From NCBI RefSeq assembly GCF_001267885.1, contig NZ_CP012382.1, positions 5,009,001-5,073,000 of the forward strand: a stretch of DNA of 64,000 nt, in the 5' to 3' direction. The position numbers and the translations under genes are program-made. Source of the DNA: Streptomyces ambofaciens ATCC 23877 (GTDB taxonomy: Bacteria; Actinomycetota; Actinomycetes; Streptomycetales; Streptomycetaceae). The notes below the pieces were generated by a model. The model did not search any database, was not told the origin of the DNA, and saw only the letters and a list, made by a program, of their open reading frames with translations. Below are positions 55,805 to 64,000 of this stretch, in pieces (positions within the stretch are counted from its first letter, which is position 1; the number at the start of each line of letters is the position of its first letter).

Positions 55805-57835
55805 ATGCCCAATCGACTCGCGCAGGCCACGTCCCCGTACCTCCTCCAGCACGCGGACAACCCCGTCGACTGGTGGCCGTGGGAGCCCCAGGCGTTCGAG
55901 GAGGCCCGGCGGCGCGACGTCCCGGTCCTCCTGAGCGTCGGCTACAGCGCCTGTCACTGGTGTCACGTCATGGCCCACGAGTCCTTCGAGGACGAGGCCA
56001 CCGCCGCCTACCTGAACGAGCACTTCGTGTCCGTCAAGGTCGACCGCGAGGAGCGGCCCGACGTGGACGCCGTCTACATGGAGGCCGTGCAGGCGGCGAC
56101 CGGACAGGGCGGCTGGCCCATGACCGTGTTCCTCACCCCGGACGCCGAGCCCTTCTACTTCGGCACCTACTACCCGCCCGAGCCCCGGCACGGCATGCCG
56201 TCCTTCCGGCAGGTGCTCCAGGGCGTCCACCAGGCCTGGGCCGAGCGCCGGGACGAGGTGACCGACGTCGCCGGGAAGATCGTGCGGGACCTCGCCGGGC
56301 GGGAGATCTCCTACGGCGACGCGCAGGCGCCCGGCGAGGCCGAGCTCGGGCAGGCGCTGCTCGGGCTCACCCGGGAGTACGACCCGCAGCGCGGCGGGTT
56401 CGGCGGGGCGCCGAAGTTCCCGCCGTCCATGGTGGTCGAGTTCCTGCTGCGCCACCACGCCCGCACCGGCGCGGAGGGCGCGCTCCAGATGGCGCGGGAC
56501 ACCTGCGAGCGGATGGCGCGCGGCGGGATCTACGACCAGCTCGGCGGCGGTTTCGCGCGCTACTCCGTGGACCGCGAGTGGGTCGTGCCCCACTTCGAGA
56601 AGATGCTGTACGACAACGCCCTGCTGTGCCGGGTCTACGCCCACCTGTGGCGTGCCACCGGCTCGGAGCTCGCCCGCCGGGTCGCGCTGGAGACCGCCGA
56701 CTTCATGGTGCGGGAACTGCGCACCGCCGAGGGCGGCTTCGCCTCCGCGCTGGACGCGGACAGCGACGACGGGACGGGCCGGCACGTCGAGGGCGCCTAC
56801 TACGTGTGGACGCCCGCGCGGCTCACCGAGGTGCTCGGCGCCGACGACGCCGCGCTCGCCGCCCAGTACTTCGGCGTGACCGAGGAGGGCACCTTCGAGC
56901 ACGGCTCCTCGGTGCTGCAACTGCCGCAGCAGGAGGGTGTGTTCGAGGCGGAGCGGATCGCCTCGATCCGGGAGCGGCTGCTGGCCGCCCGGGACGGACG
57001 CCCCGCCCCGGGCCGGGACGACAAGGTGGTCGCGGCCTGGAACGGCCTGGCGGTCGCCGCGCTCGCCGAGACGGGCGCCTACTTCGAGCGCCCCGACCTG
57101 GTGGAGGCCGCCGTCGCCGCCGCGGACCTGCTGGTGCGGCTGCACCTCGACGACCACGGGCGGCTCTTCCGTACCAGCAAGGACGGCCGGGCCGGCGCCC
57201 ACGCCGGGGTGCTGGAGGACTACGCCGACGTGGCGGAGGGCTTCCTCGCGCTGGCGTCGGTGACCGGGGAGGGCGTCTGGCTGGACTTCGCCGGGCTGCT
57301 GCTCGACCACGTCCTCACCCGCTTCGCCGACGACTCCGGTTCCCTGTACGACACCGCGGCCGACGCCGAGCAGCTGATCCGCCGCCCGCAGGACCCCACC
57401 GACAACGCCACCCCGTCCGGCTGGAGCGCCGCCGCCGGCGCCCTCCTGTCCTACGCCGCCCACACCGGCTCCGAGCCCCACCGCACCGCCGCCGAGCGCG
57501 CCCTGGGGGTCGTGAAGGCGCTCGGTCCGCGGGTGCCGCGGTTCATCGGCTGGGGACTGGCCGCCGCCGAGGCGCTGCTCGACGGGCCGCGCGAAGTGGC
57601 CGTCGTCGGACCGTCGCCGGACGACGGCGCGACCAGGGGCCTGCACCGCACGGCACTTCTGGGGACGGCCCCGGGCGCCGTCGTCGCCGTGGGCACGGAG
57701 GGGAGCGACGAATTCCCCCTGCTGGCCGACCGGCCGCTGGTGAACGGCGCCCCGGCCGCGTACGTCTGCCGTAACTTCACCTGCGACGCGCCGACGACCG
57801 ATCCGGAACGGCTGCGCGCCAGCCTGAACAGCTGA
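55805..57835 (+). CDS. Thioredoxin-domain protein of YyaL/SPATA20 family
   Basis: This 676-residue protein begins with [22 protein letters not shown], the family signature. A thioredoxin-like domain follows with [16 protein letters not shown] (CxxC-type pair), then an (alpha/alpha)6 barrel resembling a glycosidase/epimerase (about 190-560) with [13 protein letters not shown] and ALDADSD. Members occur from bacteria to man; the biochemical role is not settled. Start ATG 55805 is at the conserved N-terminus although GGAGGT is unusually close. It is divergent from the TPR protein. The next operon starts 204 nt after its stop. Confidence 0.93.
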
Positions 57836-58039
57836 AACGACATAAAGAGAAACAATGGGAACGGGACCGATGGGTGAAATGTTCAGACCCGGTCCGCGTT
57901 GTGAGGAAACACGCTCTTCACCCAACCACCTTATGTGTTTCACGGATTACCCCTAGCCTCTTCACCGTGACGCGGAGTGGCCGCCCGGTTTCGGGCGCGC
58001 CCCCGCGGCAGGGGGAGTTCAAGATCTGGGGGGATCTTT

Positions 58040-59302
58040 TTGCTGACGTCCGTCTTCATCGCTGCCGTTTCCCTGGCGCTCTTCTGGATGGCGGCGTTCA
58101 CGCTGTGGTGGCAGATGCACGCCTGGCGTACGCCGGAGGTTCTCGCCTCCACCCGCTTCAGCAGCCCGGACGGGGACGAGCACGTGTCGTTCTCGCTGCT
58201 GCTGCCCGCGCGGCACGAACAGGCCGTGCTCGACCACACCATCCAGCGGCTGCTGACCTCGTCCCACACCGACTTCGAGATCATCGTGATCGTCGGGCAC
58301 GACGATCCGGAGACCACCGCCGTCGCCGAACGGGCCGCGGCTCGTGATCCGCGGGTGCGGGTCGTCGTCGACACCCACGAGAAGAAGAACAAGCCGAAGG
58401 CCATGAACACGGCGCTGCCGCACTGCCGCGGTGACGTCGTCGGAGTCTTCGACGCCGAGGACCAGGTCCATCCCGAGCTGCTCGCCCACGTCGACCACGC
58501 CTTCCGCACCACGGGCGCCGACGTGGTGCAGGGCGGGGTCCAGCTGATCAACTTCCATTCCAGCTGGTACAGCCTGCGCAACTGCCTGGAGTACTTCTTC
58601 TGGTTCCGCTCCCGGCTGCACCTGCACGCGCAGAAGGGGTTCATCCCGCTCGGCGGCAACACCGTCTTCGTGCGCACGGACGTGCTCCGGGCGGCCGACG
58701 GCTGGGACCCGGACTGCCTGGCCGAGGACTGCGACCTCGGGGTCCGGCTCTCCAGCACCGGCAAGAAGGTCGTCGTCGCCTACGACTCCGACATGGTCAC
58801 CCGCGAGGAGACCCCGGGCACGCTGGTCTCCCTGCTGAAACAGCGCACCCGCTGGAACCAGGGCTTCCTCCAGGTGTACCGGAAGAAGGACTGGCGGCAA
58901 CTGCCGACCTTCACCCAGCGGTTGCTGGCCCGCTACACCCTGATGACGCCGTTCCTGCAGGCCTTCACCGGCGTGATCATCCCGCTCAACGCGGCCGTCG
59001 CGCTCTTCCTGGACGTGCCCGTCGGCATCGCCTTCGTCACCTTCCTGCCGGCCGTCACCGCCCTGGTCACCTTCGTCTTCGAGGTCGTCGGCCTGCACGA
59101 CTTCGGCAAGCAGTACGGCCTGCGGATCCGCTTCACGCACTACCTCAAGCTGATCGTCGGCGGCCCCTTCTACCAGGTCCTGCTGGCCGGGGCCGCCGTC
59201 CGCGCCGTCTGGCGTGAGCAGCGCGGCCGCAACGACTGGGAGCTGACCAGCCATGTCGGCGCACACCTCGCGCCCGTGGACCGAGAGGACGTTCTCGCGT
59301 GA
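58040..59302 (+). CDS. Processive-type family 2 glycosyltransferase (cellulose synthase-like)
   Basis: This 420-residue membrane glycosyltransferase has an N-terminal helix, a GT2 domain with SLLLPARHEQ, the metal-binding DAED (138-141), LAEDCD with the catalytic acid region (228-232) and the processive motif QRTRW (268-272). Three C-terminal helices follow. It is much shorter than CslA of the cslA-glxA locus (about 600 residues) and lacks its extra segments. TTG 58040 was chosen because GGGGGGA lies just upstream and the protein then begins at its helix; GTG 57977 is the alternative. A TAGCCT -10-like box lies at 57954. It heads a coupled operon with the next three genes. Confidence 0.88.
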   Translation: MLTSVFIAAVSLALFWMAAFTLWWQMHAWRTPEVLASTRFSSPDGDEHVSFSLLLPARHEQAVLDHTIQRLLTSSHTDFEIIVIVGHDDPETTAVAERAAARDPRVRVVVDTHEKKNKPKAMNTALPHCRGDVVGVFDAEDQVHPELLAHVDHAFRTTGADVVQGGVQLINFHSSWYSLRNCLEYFFWFRSRLHLHAQKGFIPLGGNTVFVRTDVLRAADGWDPDCLAEDCDLGVRLSSTGKKVVVAYDSDMVTREETPGTLVSLLKQRTRWNQGFLQVYRKKDWRQLPTFTQRLLARYTLMTPFLQAFTGVIIPLNAAVALFLDVPVGIAFVTFLPAVTALVTFVFEVVGLHDFGKQYGLRIRFTHYLKLIVGGPFYQVLLAGAAVRAVWREQRGRNDWELTSHVGAHLAPVDREDVLA

Positions 59303-60948
59303 CCTCCACCCTCCCCGCGGCGACCGGTACCAAGGTCCCCGCGCAGCGCAGGCCTGCCCACGACACCGTTCCGGCCACCACACCGGGGACGCCACCGGGC
59401 CGTCTGCGGCCGGCCCGCCCGGACCTGCTGCTGTGCGGCACGCTCCTCGTGGCGATCATGCTCGTGCAGGGCTGGAACATCTCCGACTACCCGACCCTCA
59501 GTGACGACGAGGGCACCTACCTCGCCCAGGCCTGGGCGGTCCAGCAGGGCGAGGGCCTGGCCCACTACACCTACTGGTACGACCACCCGCCGCTCGGCTG
59601 GATCCAGATAGCCGTGCTGACCTGGATCCCCGCGCTGATCAGTCCCGAGTCGATGACCGTCGGCGCCATGCGCGGCGTGATGCTGCTGATCGGCGCCGTC
59701 TCCGCCGCCCTCGTCTACGTGATCGCCCGCCGCCTCTCCCTGCCCCGCTGGGCGGCCGGGCTCGCCATGGCCCTCTTCGGCCTCTCCCCGCTCTCGGTGG
59801 TCCTCCAGCGGGAGATCTTCCTCGACAACCTCGCGGTGATGTGGACGCTGCTGGCCTTCGCGCTCGCCGCCTCCCCGAGCCGCCACCTGTGGCACCACTT
59901 CGGCGCGGGCATCGCCGCCGCGACGGCCGTGCTCACCAAGGAGACGATGCTCGTCGTCCTGCCCGCCCTGTTCGTCACCGCCTGGCGGCACAGCCACCGG
60001 GACACCCGCAAGTTCGCGCTGACCGGCGCCGTCACGGCCTGCACGCTCATCGGGTTCGCGTACCCGCTGTTCGCCCTGCTCAAGGGCGAGCTGCTGCCGG
60101 GCAGCGGGCACGTCTCGCTGTGGGAGGGTGTCGAGTACCAGCTCACCCGCCCCGGCTCCGGATTCATCCTCGACGAGGGCTCCGGCTCGTGGGGCGTCCT
60201 CCAGTCCTGGCTGTACTACGACCGCGTCCTGCCGCTCGGCGGCCTCGCCGGAGCGCTGCTCCTGCTGGCGACCTGGCGCTGGTCGGTCACCGCACGGGCC
60301 CTGGCCGGACCCGCCCTGACGGTGGGCATCCTCGCCGCCCTGGCCCTGCGCCCGAGCGGCTACCTGCCCGCGATGTACGTCATCCAGGCGCTGCCCTTCC
60401 TCGCCCTGGTGCTGGCCGGCGGCACGGCGAGCATCGCCCACGCCGTGCTGCGCAGACGACGTACGGAGGCCGAGAAACGGGGCCTGACGTACGGCCGGTA
60501 CGCCGTCGCCGGCGCCCTGGCGCTGGCCGCCTGCGCCTACGTCGTCCCCCGCTGGTACGACGGGGACCGCACCGCCGTCACCGCCGACGCCAACGCCCCC
60601 TACGAGGCCGCCGCGGACTGGATGGCCAGTGAGGTGGAGGACCCCGCCCGCACCCGCGTCCTCGTCGACGACGCCCTCTGGCTGGACCTCGTGCACGCCG
60701 GGTACGAGCCGGGGCTCGGGGTCATCTGGTTCTACAAGGCCGACCTCGACCCGGCCGTGACGAAGACGATGCCGGGCGGCTGGCGCGACATCGACTACGT
60801 GGTCGCCTCCCCGACGGTGCGGCGCGACGCGGTCGACCTGCCCAATGTCCGGGCCGCCATGAACCATTCGAGGCCGGTCGCCGTCTTCGGCACCGGCGCG
60901 GACCGCATCGAGATCCGCCGCGTCCAGTCCTCCGGAGCCGCCCGATGA
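59299..60948 (+). CDS. GT39/ArnT-like membrane glycosyltransferase
   Basis: This 549-residue polytopic protein has about eleven hydrophobic helices. The catalytic loop is WNISDYPTLSDDEGTYLAQAWAVQQG with the acidic pair after the first helix, followed by YWYDHPPLGWIQIA. This is the dolichol-phosphate-mannose protein mannosyltransferase/ArnT (PMT_2, GT-C) pattern. Such enzymes transfer sugars from a polyprenyl-phosphate donor on the outer face. Its GTG start overlaps the stop of the GT2 gene by 4 nt, and its own stop overlaps the next gene, so it is strictly coupled. The likely donor maker is encoded next. Confidence 0.88.
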   Translation: MTSTLPAATGTKVPAQRRPAHDTVPATTPGTPPGRLRPARPDLLLCGTLLVAIMLVQGWNISDYPTLSDDEGTYLAQAWAVQQGEGLAHYTYWYDHPPLGWIQIAVLTWIPALISPESMTVGAMRGVMLLIGAVSAALVYVIARRLSLPRWAAGLAMALFGLSPLSVVLQREIFLDNLAVMWTLLAFALAASPSRHLWHHFGAGIAAATAVLTKETMLVVLPALFVTAWRHSHRDTRKFALTGAVTACTLIGFAYPLFALLKGELLPGSGHVSLWEGVEYQLTRPGSGFILDEGSGSWGVLQSWLYYDRVLPLGGLAGALLLLATWRWSVTARALAGPALTVGILAALALRPSGYLPAMYVIQALPFLALVLAGGTASIAHAVLRRRRTEAEKRGLTYGRYAVAGALALAACAYVVPRWYDGDRTAVTADANAPYEAAADWMASEVEDPARTRVLVDDALWLDLVHAGYEPGLGVIWFYKADLDPAVTKTMPGGWRDIDYVVASPTVRRDAVDLPNVRAAMNHSRPVAVFGTGADRIEIRRVQSSGAAR

Positions 60949-62126
60949 GCCACGAGTCCACCGTCCCCGGCGAGCTGGGCCATCCGGCCGTCGGCGCCTC
61001 GGAGGTGCCCGAGCCGGGCGCCGTCACCATCGTCGTGCCGACCTTCAACGAGTCCGGGAACGTGCGGCGGTTGCTGCACCTGATCACCGAGTCCGTGCCC
61101 GCCCGGCTGCCCTGCGAGGTCGTCTTCGTGGACGACTCCACCGACGACACCCCGGACGTGATCCGCGCGGCGGCGCTCGACTGCCCCTTCCCGGTCACCG
61201 TCCTGCACCGCGAGGAGCCGTCCGGCGGGCTCGGCGGCGCGGTCGTCGAGGGCATGAAGGCGGCCGGGTCGGACTGGATCGTCGTCATGGACGGCGACTG
61301 CCAGCACCCGCCCTCCCTGGTGCCGGAGCTGGTCGCCACCGGCGAGCGGGCGAACGCCGGACTCGTCGTCGCCTCCCGCTACATCAAGGGCGGCAGCCGC
61401 GCCGGGCTGGCGGGCAGCTACCGGATCGCCGTGTCCCGCGCGGCGACCTGGCTGACCAAGGCGCTCTTCCCGCGCCGGCTGCACGGCGTCAGCGACCCGA
61501 TGAGCGGCTTCTTCGCCATCCGCCGCAGCGCGGTCACCGCCGAGGTGCTCAAGCCCCTCGGGTACAAGATCCTGCTCGAACTGGCGGTCCGCAGCCGCCC
61601 CCAGACGGTCACCGAGGTGCCGTTCGTCTTCGAGGAGCGGTTCGCCGGCGAGTCCAAGTCCACGGCGCAGGAAGGCCTGCGCTTCCTGCGCCACCTGGCC
61701 GGGCTGCGCACCACCTCGCCCCTGGCCCGCATGGTCGTCTTCGGGCTGATCGGCCTGAGCGGTTTCGTGCCCAACCTCGCGGCTCTGTGGGCGCTGACCG
61801 AGGCCGGGCTGCACTACCTGCCCGCGGAGATCCTCGCCAACCAGTTCGGCGTGGCCTGGAACTTCCTGCTCCTGGAGCGGCTGCTCTTCCGCGACCGGCG
61901 CCGGCACCGGCACTGGGCCGACCGCACCCTGCGGTTCACGCTGATCGCCAACGCCGACCTGGTGCTGCGCATACCGCTGATCGCCCTGCTCGTCGGGCAG
62001 TTCGGGCTGACCGTGCTGCCGGCCACCGCCCTCGCCCTCGTCATCACCTTCGTCCTGCGCTTCGCCGGGACGGAGGCGCTCGTGTACCTCCCGCGCAGGC
62101 GTCGTACGTCAAGGAGTGACGCATGA
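60945..62126 (+). CDS. Polyprenyl-phosphate mannosyl transferase (DPM-type GT2) fused to GtrA
   Basis: This 393-residue protein joins a dolichol-phosphate-mannose-synthase-like GT2 domain (about 25-255: TIVVPTFNESGNVRRLL, VVFVDDSTDDTP, VVMDGDCQHPPS, GVSDPMSGFFAIRR) to a GtrA-like domain of four helices (about 265-390). It should charge polyprenyl phosphate with a hexose and flip or hold the lipid-linked sugar. It overlaps the preceding gene (ATGA) and the following gene by 4 nt. The fused layout is well known in actinobacteria. The product would feed the GT39-type enzyme encoded upstream. Confidence 0.92.
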   Translation: MSHESTVPGELGHPAVGASEVPEPGAVTIVVPTFNESGNVRRLLHLITESVPARLPCEVVFVDDSTDDTPDVIRAAALDCPFPVTVLHREEPSGGLGGAVVEGMKAAGSDWIVVMDGDCQHPPSLVPELVATGERANAGLVVASRYIKGGSRAGLAGSYRIAVSRAATWLTKALFPRRLHGVSDPMSGFFAIRRSAVTAEVLKPLGYKILLELAVRSRPQTVTEVPFVFEERFAGESKSTAQEGLRFLRHLAGLRTTSPLARMVVFGLIGLSGFVPNLAALWALTEAGLHYLPAEILANQFGVAWNFLLLERLLFRDRRRHRHWADRTLRFTLIANADLVLRIPLIALLVGQFGLTVLPATALALVITFVLRFAGTEALVYLPRRRRTSRSDA

Positions 62127-64000
62127 GAAGACCCCGACGGAGAACCTCCGCCCTCCTGGCGGTGTCCGCCCTCACCGGCGGCCTCCTGCTCACCGCCCCG
62201 CAGCCCGCCTCCGCCGCCAACCTGATCACGAATCCGGGGTTCGAGACCGCGGGCACCGGCGGCATGCCGTACTGCTGGTCGAAGTCCGGCTGGGGCGACA
62301 ACGACTTCACCTTCGAGACCGTCGGCGACGCCCACACCGGTACGAAGGCCATGAAGGTCGAGCTGACCCGCCGGACCGACGGCGACCGCAAGGCCCTGAT
62401 CACCGAGTCCAACGCGTGCGCCCCGGTGGTGACGGTGGGCAAGCAGTACGACCTGTCGCTCTGGTACAAGACGACGACCCCGGACGCCTCCCTCACCCTC
62501 TTCCGGCACGACGCCACCGCCGGCTGGCAGTACTGGACCGACCTGAAGACCCTGGACCTGGCGGCCGGCTGGACCGAGGCGAGCGTCCGCACCCCCGAGG
62601 TCCCGGCCGGCACCGACCGCATCAGCTGGGGCGTCTCGGTCTACGGCACCGGCTCGGCGACCACCGACGACTACACGATGGAGCAGGTCGCCGACCCCGT
62701 CCCGGACCCGGAGTGCACGGGGACCGCCGAGGAGTGCGCGAACGGCCGCTGGGACGTGCTGCCCACGCGCAACCCGGTGCGTTCCATGCACTCCGTCGTC
62801 CTGCACAACGGCAAGGTCCTGCTGATCGCGGGCTCCGGCAACGACCCGGAGATGTTCGAGGCGGGGACCTTCACCTCGGCCGTCTACGACCCGCAGACCG
62901 GCACGTACGAGACGATCCCGACGCCCAAGGACATGTTCTGCGCCGGGCACGTGCAGCTCAAGGACGGCCGGGTCCTCGTCATGAGCGGCAACAAGGGCTA
63001 CCCGTCGGCGGACGGCACGGTCGGCTACCAGGGCTACAAGGACTCGTACGTCTTCGACCCGGAGACCGAGACCTACACGAAGACCGGCGACATGAACGAC
63101 GGCCACTGGTACCCGTCGGCGACGATCCTCGGCAACGGCGACGTCATCTCCTTCGGCGGCCTGCGTGAGGACTCCACCGGCTCGGTGACGGCCGAACGGT
63201 GGTCGGACGAGCAGCAGAAGTGGCTGCCGACCTGGCAGGTCAACCAGACCTGGTCGTACTGGGGTCTGTACCCGTCGATGATCCTGATGCAGGACGGCCG
63301 GCTCTTCTACTCGGGCAGCCACGTCTTCGGCAACAACATCCCGGGCACCGGCTCGGCGATCTACGACTACGAGGGCAACACCATCACGCAGGTCCCCGGG
63401 CTCCAGGACAAGGACGTGCGGGACCAGTCCGCCAGCGTGCTGCTGCCCCCGGCGCAGGACCAGAAGGTGCTGACGATCGGCGGCGGCAACATCGACTCCA
63501 ACCCGGACGCCAACCGCCTCACCGACATCATCGACCTCAAGCAGCCCAACCCGACGTACGTCGCCGGGCCGCCGCTCCCGCAGGGCACCGTCGATCTCGG
63601 CAACGGCCCGGTCCCGCAGACCGGCGGCCAGGGCAAGATGTACCCCTCCACCGTCCTGCTCCCCGACGGCAAGGTCCTGGAGACCGGCGGCGCCCTGCAC
63701 AACCGGGCGGACCCCGTCTACGAGACGTCGATCTTCGACCCGCGGACGGAGACCTTCGACCCGGTCGCCCCCGACCCGGAGGCCCGCGGCTACCACTCCT
63801 CGGCGTTCCTGCTGCCCGACGGGCGGGTCATGACCACCGGCGACAACCCGGGCAACGGCTCGTGGAACCACGACGTCTCGATCTACACCCCGCCCTACCT
63901 GCTGAAGGGCGAGCGTCCGGCGATCACCTCGGTCATCGACACCGAGTGGACCTACGGCGACACCCAGCGGATCACCGTCGACCGGCCGATCGCCAAGGCC
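62123..64000 (+). CDS. Secreted galactose-oxidase-like copper radical enzyme with N-terminal CBM-like domain (cut by window end)
   Basis: 626 residues are visible and the frame is open at 64000. A signal peptide (RRPRRRTSALLAVSALTGGLLL...ASA) precedes a CBM-like beta-sandwich (about 34-190; ANLITNPGFETAG, LSLWYKT). A seven-bladed Kelch-type galactose oxidase domain follows. Its radical copper site is visible: DMFCAGH with Cys273, GHWYPSA with Tyr330 (the Tyr-Cys cofactor pair), and RGYHSSAFLLPDG with Tyr557 and His558. The final His ligand lies in the C-terminal domain beyond the window. GlxA has the same catalytic parts but lacks this N-terminal domain. Its ATG overlaps the stop of the upstream gene by 4 nt; AAGGAG precedes it. 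Confidence 0.9.
   Translation, partial: MRRPRRRTSALLAVSALTGGLLLTAPQPASAANLITNPGFETAGTGGMPYCWSKSGWGDNDFTFETVGDAHTGTKAMKVELTRRTDGDRKALITESNACAPVVTVGKQYDLSLWYKTTTPDASLTLFRHDATAGWQYWTDLKTLDLAAGWTEASVRTPEVPAGTDRISWGVSVYGTGSATTDDYTMEQVADPVPDPECTGTAEECANGRWDVLPTRNPVRSMHSVVLHNGKVLLIAGSGNDPEMFEAGTFTSAVYDPQTGTYETIPTPKDMFCAGHVQLKDGRVLVMSGNKGYPSADGTVGYQGYKDSYVFDPETETYTKTGDMNDGHWYPSATILGNGDVISFGGLREDSTGSVTAERWSDEQQKWLPTWQVNQTWSYWGLYPSMILMQDGRLFYSGSHVFGNNIPGTGSAIYDYEGNTITQVPGLQDKDVRDQSASVLLPPAQDQKVLTIGGGNIDSNPDANRLTDIIDLKQPNPTYVAGPPLPQGTVDLGNGPVPQTGGQGKMYPSTVLLPDGKVLETGGALHNRADPVYETSIFDPRTETFDPVAPDPEARGYHSSAFLLPDGRVMTTGDNPGNGSWNHDVSIYTPPYLLKGERPAITSVIDTEWTYGDTQRITVDRPIAKA

What the first reader, a model, noticed from the sequence alone, without database searches (positions are those of the whole stretch)
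58040..64000. Coupled four-gene operon: processive GT2, GT39, DPM-GtrA and galactose-oxidase-like enzyme
Each gene overlaps the next by 4 nt. The set combines a QxxRW-type GT2, a lipid-linked sugar pathway (DPM-GtrA maker and GT39 user) and a secreted copper radical oxidase. In Streptomyces the known cslA-glxA locus joins a GT2 and a copper radical oxidase to make a tip glycan. Here the GT2 is shorter, two membrane glycosyltransferases are added, and the oxidase has an extra carbohydrate-binding-like domain. I infer a separate extracellular glycan that is made, decorated and then oxidised.
Basis: partly seen in the sequence, partly recalled or inferred. Interest (0 to 1): 0.72.

Follow-up and report, generated by a model that had tools for sequence, protein, structure and literature searches.

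The report
Oxidase-coupled surface glycan operon, second type
This Streptomyces chromosome carries a four-gene operon, found in about a third of the Streptomyces species sampled and in half the genomes of an actinobacterial family rich in nitrogen-fixation genes, that looks like a second machine for building a cell-surface sugar polymer and chemically activating it with a copper enzyme, separate from the known cellulose machine CslA-GlxA.

Summary
Four co-directional genes (58040-64534; the last runs 534 bases past the window) overlap by exactly 4 nt each. They encode a QxxRW GT2 synthase, a PMT-like GT-C transferase, a DPM-GtrA lipid-sugar synthase and a secreted copper radical oxidase with the expected copper/cofactor residues. 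The set is a real unit: of 199 Streptomyces genomes 70 have the oxidase, all 70 also the GT-C gene and 69 the GT2; apart from remnants, one further genome has GT2 and GT-C orthologues. The genes stay together in four gene orders, and in versions without DPM, across Streptomycetaceae and a nifH-rich, Frankia-like family, where a SCO1 copper chaperone sits inside the cluster. It is not CslA-GlxA: the oxidases form a separate clade from GlxA (100/99), the GT2 is 22% identical to CslA, and the window's own genome keeps CslA-GlxA elsewhere. Best reading: an extracellular glycan whose chain is made by GT2, carries lipid-donated side sugars added by the GT-C enzyme, and is oxidised to aldehydes outside the cell. 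Sugars, linkages, substrate and phenotype are unknown. Ten literature searches showed no description of this operon. New variant of a known kind.

The parts
57903..57958 (+). conserved promoter-like block upstream of the operon (GAAACA ... TTTCAC N8 CCCTA); sigma factor not assigned
   Evidence: alignment of 50 leaders
58023..58037 (+). leader element GATCTGGGGGGATCT around the likely ribosome-binding site; single copy in the genome
   Evidence: exact in 62 of 80 named loci and 35 of 69 genus-set loci
58040..59302 (+). GT2 synthase, 420 aa, N-terminal and C-terminal membrane segments, DAED / AED / QRTRW motifs; TTG start
59299..60948 (+).
60945..62126 (+). DPM-type polyprenyl-phosphate hexose synthase fused to GtrA membrane domain, 393 aa
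62123..64000 (+). secreted copper radical oxidase, 803 aa in all; the gene continues to position 64534 counted on past the window end, so its E-set end and Excalibur-like tail lie outside the window

Best explanation
A dedicated extracellular-glycan operon. Step 1 (inferred from family): the GT2 protein polymerises and exports a beta-linked hexose chain from a nucleotide sugar. Step 2 (inferred): DPM-GtrA charges polyprenyl phosphate with a hexose and helps it cross the membrane; where this gene is missing, a stand-alone Ppm-type synthase may supply the donor. Step 3 (inferred): the GT-C protein takes the hexose from the lipid and attaches it outside the cell, most simply as side sugars on the GT2 chain. 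Step 4 (active site shown by sequence, substrate inferred): the secreted oxidase, matured with copper by a Sco chaperone and held in the wall or on the glycan by its carbohydrate-binding-like domain, oxidises primary alcohols of the new sugars to aldehydes, releasing H2O2 and allowing cross-linking or adhesion. Shown: linkage, co-occurrence, domain content, active-site residues, separateness from CslA-GlxA. Not shown: sugars, linkages, substrate, phenotype.
Against: No sugar, linkage or activity was measured. Two of 16 loci from other genera are lone oxidases, in genomes with no GT-C match at E<=1e-40, and a third shows GT-C>OX without GT2 nearby (L260), so the oxidase need not have the rest beside it. 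DPM-GtrA is absent beside the cluster in 3 Streptomyces sample loci, 1 named locus and 7 loci of other genera with GT2>GT-C>OX, and from the divergent loci L089 and L227. The GT2 is not clearly closest to any characterised synthase: XrtP-associated GT 94 bits, PgaC 79, both far below cut-off. The GT-C acceptor could be a protein, a teichoic acid or a lipid. CBM and Excalibur matches are below Pfam cut-offs.
Confidence: 0.57

Rival explanations
1. The cluster glycosylates secreted proteins or another wall polymer: the GT2 adds single sugars rather than making a polymer, DPM-GtrA and the GT-C enzyme O-glycosylate, and the oxidase modifies those glycoproteins or wall sugars.
For: The GT-C protein matches PMT (PF02366, 43 bits, above cut-off) and the DPM part matches Pyrococcus dolichol-phosphate-mannose synthase (185 bits); Streptomyces use polyprenol-phosphate mannose for protein O-mannosylation (PMC5882110, listing and start of abstract seen).
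Against: No PMT_4TMC domain was found (that domain is recalled as typical of bacterial PMTs). GT2 carries QRTRW and terminal membrane segments typical of polymerising, exporting synthases (typicality recalled). A paralogous GT2>GT-C pair sits with cellulase-family genes.
Confidence: 0.2
2. It is simply an extra copy of cslA-glxA, as reported for S. griseus, S. albus and S. roseosporus, making cellulose.
For: Same GT2-plus-copper-radical-oxidase logic; the oxidase matches the GlxA model NF052501 with 411 bits; extra cslA-glxA copies are described in PMC3543389 (section 5 read).
Against: 411 bits against a cut-off of 800; separate oxidase clade, 100/99; GT2 22% identical to CslA and on the far side of a long branch; GlxA's insert of about 110 residues is missing; in 180 operon loci the best CslA hit is 53 bits at 22%, at the GT2 itself; in five genomes with two GlxA-type hits, all 8 GlxA loci examined stand next to CslA and not next to these genes.
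Confidence: 0.05
3. The oxidase is a secreted scavenging or defensive enzyme (H2O2 or aldehyde production) that only happens to be co-transcribed with a glycan locus.
For: Two lone oxidases in other genera; copper radical oxidases act on many alcohols (recalled).
Against: 70 of 70 co-occurrence with the GT-C gene and linkage kept through four gene orders; oxidase directly after GT-C in the 11 loci with GT2>GT-C>OX.
Confidence: 0.12

Closest known systems
CslA-GlxA(-CslZ) cellulose synthase complex of Streptomyces (PMC11022532, passages seen; PMC3543389, passages and section 5 read)
   Same: GT2 synthase with QxxRW coupled to a galactose-oxidase-fold copper radical oxidase; filamentous actinobacteria; a sco gene nearby in some Frankia-like loci.
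   Different: GT2 is 420 aa against 667 and 22% identical; the oxidase is in another clade, lacks GlxA's insert, and has an apparent signal peptide (read from sequence) plus CBM-like and Excalibur-like or PA14 domains where GlxA has a membrane anchor; a lipid-sugar branch (DPM-GtrA, GT-C) is added. Both systems coexist in the window's genome.
Frankia gene cluster beside sco noted in PMC4736821 (passages and section 17 read; its figure S1 not seen)
   Same: May overlap with the loci found here: oxidase, SCO1 and GT2 together.
   Different: There it is called the cslA-glxA cluster. Here the Frankia-like family shows CslA-GlxA loci (4 of 4 examined, 3 with a sco gene nearby) and a distinct DPM-oxidase-SCO1-GT2-GT-C cluster; the two of its oxidases scanned carry PA14 repeats.
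Lactobacillus johnsonii GtrA-GtrB-dependent glucan exopolysaccharide (PMC7117936, outline and abstract read)
   Same: A putative bactoprenol glycosyltransferase and GtrA-type flippase are needed for an exopolysaccharide.
   Different: No oxidase or GT2 polymerase was mentioned in the abstract or outline that I read.
Pyrococcus furiosus DPMS (PDB 5mlz; species and naming recalled)
   Same: GT2 domain plus GtrA membrane domain, match over residues 27-373, 185 bits.
   Different: Sugar donor and lipid of the window protein are not established.
Paralogous Streptomyces locus GH5-GH6-S8 / GT2-GT-C-X-regulator (loci L229-L237, L248)
   Same: Same GT2 family (41-45%) next to a GT-C protein (27-34%).
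   Different: No oxidase or DPM hit; cellulase-family genes instead.

Membership tests
Copper radical oxidase (galactose oxidase / GlxA fold, AA5-like) | Cys and Tyr of the thioether cofactor, axial Tyr, two His ligands (positions recalled) | tested here: met
   FC.GH, WYP, YHS, TH..D.NQR align with GlxA and GalOx; all four motifs in 79 of 81 operon-type frames
Copper radical oxidase (galactose oxidase / GlxA fold, AA5-like) | Kelch propeller plus E-set domain | tested here: met
Copper radical oxidase (galactose oxidase / GlxA fold, AA5-like) | Copper binding and oxidase activity | not testable with these tools
   needs purified protein
GlxA orthologue | Score over the NCBIfam equivalog cut-off (NF052501) | tested here: not met
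   411 bits against 800
GlxA orthologue | Inside the GlxA clade | tested here: not met
   19 operon-type oxidases and 13 GlxA form separate sides, 100/99
GlxA orthologue | Encoded next to cslA | tested here: not met
   no CslA orthologue in 180 operon loci, best hit 53 bits at the GT2; own CslA-GlxA at L004
CslA / bacterial cellulose synthase | Falls with CslA in a tree | tested here: not met
   8 CslA form a separate clade; 22% identity over 320 aa
Processive GT2 synthase | QxxRW, acidic motifs, terminal membrane segments | tested here: met
Processive GT2 synthase | Polymer product | not testable with these tools
   needs glycan analysis
DPM synthase with GtrA domain | GT2 domain with acidic motif plus PF04138 | tested here: met
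   PF04138 61.8 bits (cut-off 26.1), DGD motif
GT39 protein O-mannosyltransferase | PMT core domain | tested here: met
   PF02366 43.1 bits (cut-off 22.7), PF13231 36.1 (cut-off 26.1)
GT39 protein O-mannosyltransferase | C-terminal PMT_4TMC domain (recalled) | tested here: not met
   not among Pfam matches at E<=0.001
Excalibur / CBM_4_9 accessory domains on the oxidase | Pfam cut-off | tested here: inconclusive
   CBM_4_9 17.6 of 25.9 bits; Excalibur 16.5 of 22 bits

The most novel reading that the evidence does not exclude
An undescribed class of surface-glycan machine in actinobacteria, with GT2 synthase + GT-C side-chain transferase + copper radical oxidase as its core and lipid-sugar synthase and Sco chaperone as satellites. 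It builds a branched glycan outside the membrane and oxidises the branches to aldehydes that cross-link the sheath. It exists in parallel with CslA-GlxA and is shared by Streptomycetaceae and a nifH-rich, Frankia-like family, where the oxidase has swapped its carbohydrate-binding domains.
Probability: 0.45. Interest if true: 0.66.

Novelty: new variant of a known kind. Interest (0 to 1): 0.52.

Why it matters
What GlxA's oxidase chemistry does for the tip glycan is unresolved in the passages I read. A second, independent GT2-plus-oxidase system with an added side-chain pathway gives a comparison: if the oxidase follows the GT-C enzyme, the substrate is probably the added side sugar. It also means that roughly a third of Streptomyces species (70 of 199 sampled) may make another oxidised surface polymer that could bear on pellets, aerial growth and adhesion, and that in species carrying both enzymes some copper-dependent traits need not be GlxA's alone.

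Tried and rejected
Extra copy of cslA-glxA: rejected. Riboswitch in the leader: four Rfam matches, all below gathering score. GT-C structure: the AlphaFold model had mean pLDDT 50.8 and was not searched; a sequence search of the PDB gave no match at E<=1. Foldseek and VIA lists for the oxidase were filled by its catalytic domain; no match to the N-terminal domain alone was seen among the rows shown, which says nothing about its fold. A link between the cluster and nitrogen fixation in family f18 was checked: 18 of 35 genomes have the oxidase and all 18 have nifH, but 7 of 25 nifH genomes lack the oxidase and the genera are clumped, so I do not claim a functional link. Left out of the co-occurrence counts: the G198 GT-C fragment at a contig end (42-47%), remnants in G124 and G043, and the 30-45% paralogues of GT2 and GT-C in nine genomes. 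The GT2 tree dropped the row L220 (2 residues).

Literature: all ten searches (open-access PMC only) showed no paper describing this operon in their listings; figure S1 of PMC4736821 was not seen.

Full report
What is there. The window is G000:C1:5009001-5073000 of an 8.39 Mb genome, whose nearest named relatives by this locus are Streptomyces (best 93% identity). Four co-directional genes lie between a YyaL/DUF255-like gene (55805-57835; name recalled, no family scan run on it) and a convergent gene downstream; both flanks recur in many relatives. The oxidase runs past the window to 64534 and is 803 aa long. The junctions are GTGA, ATGA and ATGA, 4 nt each. The TTG at 58040 is the likely GT2 start, because leaders of relatives differ just upstream of it by indels that are not multiples of three.

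Is the set real? In 199 Streptomyces genomes the operon-type oxidase (about 60% identity or more) occurs in 70, the GT-C orthologue in 71 and the GT2 orthologue in 70. All 70 oxidase genomes have the GT-C gene and 69 have the GT2 (G152 is broken by contig ends). G073 has GT2 and GT-C on two contigs and no operon-type oxidase. Remnants occur in G124 and G043. Of 72 sample loci fetched, 57 show GT2>GT-C>DPM>OX, 6 the divergent order, 3 lack DPM, and 6 are truncated or remnants. Of 80 named loci, 76 show the full order, 3 are incomplete at contig ends and 1 lacks DPM (the named loci are the best 80 of 334).

Outside Streptomyces the oxidase is found in 4 other genera of the family (71 of 297 genomes in all at E<=1e-120, Streptomyces included; 5 of 17 genera). 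All 16 non-Streptomyces loci were fetched: 7 are GT2>GT-C>OX, 2 have the full order, 2 the divergent order, 2 are OX>SCO1>GT2>GT-C with DPM following, 1 is GT-C>OX, and 2 are lone oxidases in genomes with no GT-C match at E<=1e-40. In family f18 the operon-type oxidase is in 18 of 35 genomes, and in 9 of the 9 loci fetched from these, DPM, oxidase, SCO1, GT2 and GT-C lie together on one strand. There the oxidase has PA14 repeats: 4 and 3 in the two proteins scanned. f18 is probably Frankiaceae, as 25 of 35 genomes have nifH.

Not CslA-GlxA. The window's genome has its own CslA (667 aa) and GlxA (645 aa) elsewhere. The GT2 shares 22% with CslA, and in 180 operon loci the best CslA hit is 53 bits, at the GT2 itself. 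In an oxidase tree of 35 rows, 19 operon-type proteins from both families stand apart from 13 GlxA, support 100/99. In a GT2 tree, 8 CslA stand apart from 25 GT2 rows; long branches make the finer joins unsure. Five Streptomyces genomes with two GlxA-type hits were checked at 8 loci: all 8 GlxA genes lie beside CslA, the kind of extra copy reported in PMC3543389. In f18, 4 of 4 GlxA loci examined lie beside CslA; of these four genomes only G235 also has the operon.

How it may work. A GT2 synthase with QxxRW plus a DPM-GtrA donor and a GT-C acceptor enzyme is a plausible kit for a chain that gains lipid-donated side sugars outside the cell (family knowledge, applied by inference). The oxidase directly follows the GT-C gene where DPM is lost, which suggests that it acts on the GT-C product. 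The chaperone Sco is needed for GlxA maturation in S. lividans under copper limitation (PMC4736821, passages and section 17 read), so a SCO1 gene placed between oxidase and GT2 argues for a working copper enzyme. The DPM-less genomes searched have only relatives of 30-40% identity that match the synthase part and not the GtrA part; these might supply the lipid donor. G457 has a DPM-GtrA elsewhere, matched in two pieces. The paralogous GT2>GT-C locus with GH5 (9 of 9) and GH6 (8 of 9, one partial) genes suggests a beta-1,4-glucan-like backbone for this GT2 family, but named-family scores do not decide it.

Limits. Everything about sugars, linkages and phenotype is inference. Genome sampling was even but phylogenetically clumped. 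The model confidence of the GT-C protein was too low to use. PMC4736821 mentions a Frankia cluster next to sco which may overlap the f18 loci; its figure was not seen. Within the ten literature searches made, I found no description of the four-gene operon. On checking, motif, CslA and gene-order statements were recounted; the confidence of the best explanation went from 0.58 to 0.57 because more DPM-less and GT2-less loci are now told.

Noticed in passing
L229-L237 and L248 (9 Streptomyces genomes): A second, different locus with the same GT2 and GT-C families: GH5, GH6 and S8 protease genes divergent from GT2, GT-C, a 513-aa acidic protein and a possible regulator; no oxidase hit.
   Followed up: partly
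window 58023-58037: GATCTGGGGGGATCT in the leader is unique in the genome even with one mismatch; exact in 62 of 80 named and 35 of 69 genus-set loci and missing from the divergent loci L070-L093; it frames the likely ribosome-binding site.
   Followed up: partly
L192 and L211: A second operon-type oxidase stands close to the first in one Frankia-like cluster (L192, at a contig end); in L211 the second copy is in pieces.
   Followed up: no
L094 (G124), L225 (G043), L221 (G142): Decayed copies: oxidase with GT-C or GT2 fragments, and an oxidase split into two frames.
   Followed up: no
L200, L201, L202: In the Frankia-like family a sco gene also lies within about 2.7-6.5 kb of CslA-GlxA in 3 of 4 loci, so both oxidase systems can have a nearby copper chaperone.
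   Followed up: partly
L255 (G713), L259 (G674): Lone operon-type oxidases in genomes with no GT-C match at E<=1e-40.
   Followed up: partly
35 genomes of family f18: All 18 genomes with the operon-type oxidase also have nifH; none of the 10 without nifH has it; confounded by phylogeny.
   Followed up: partly
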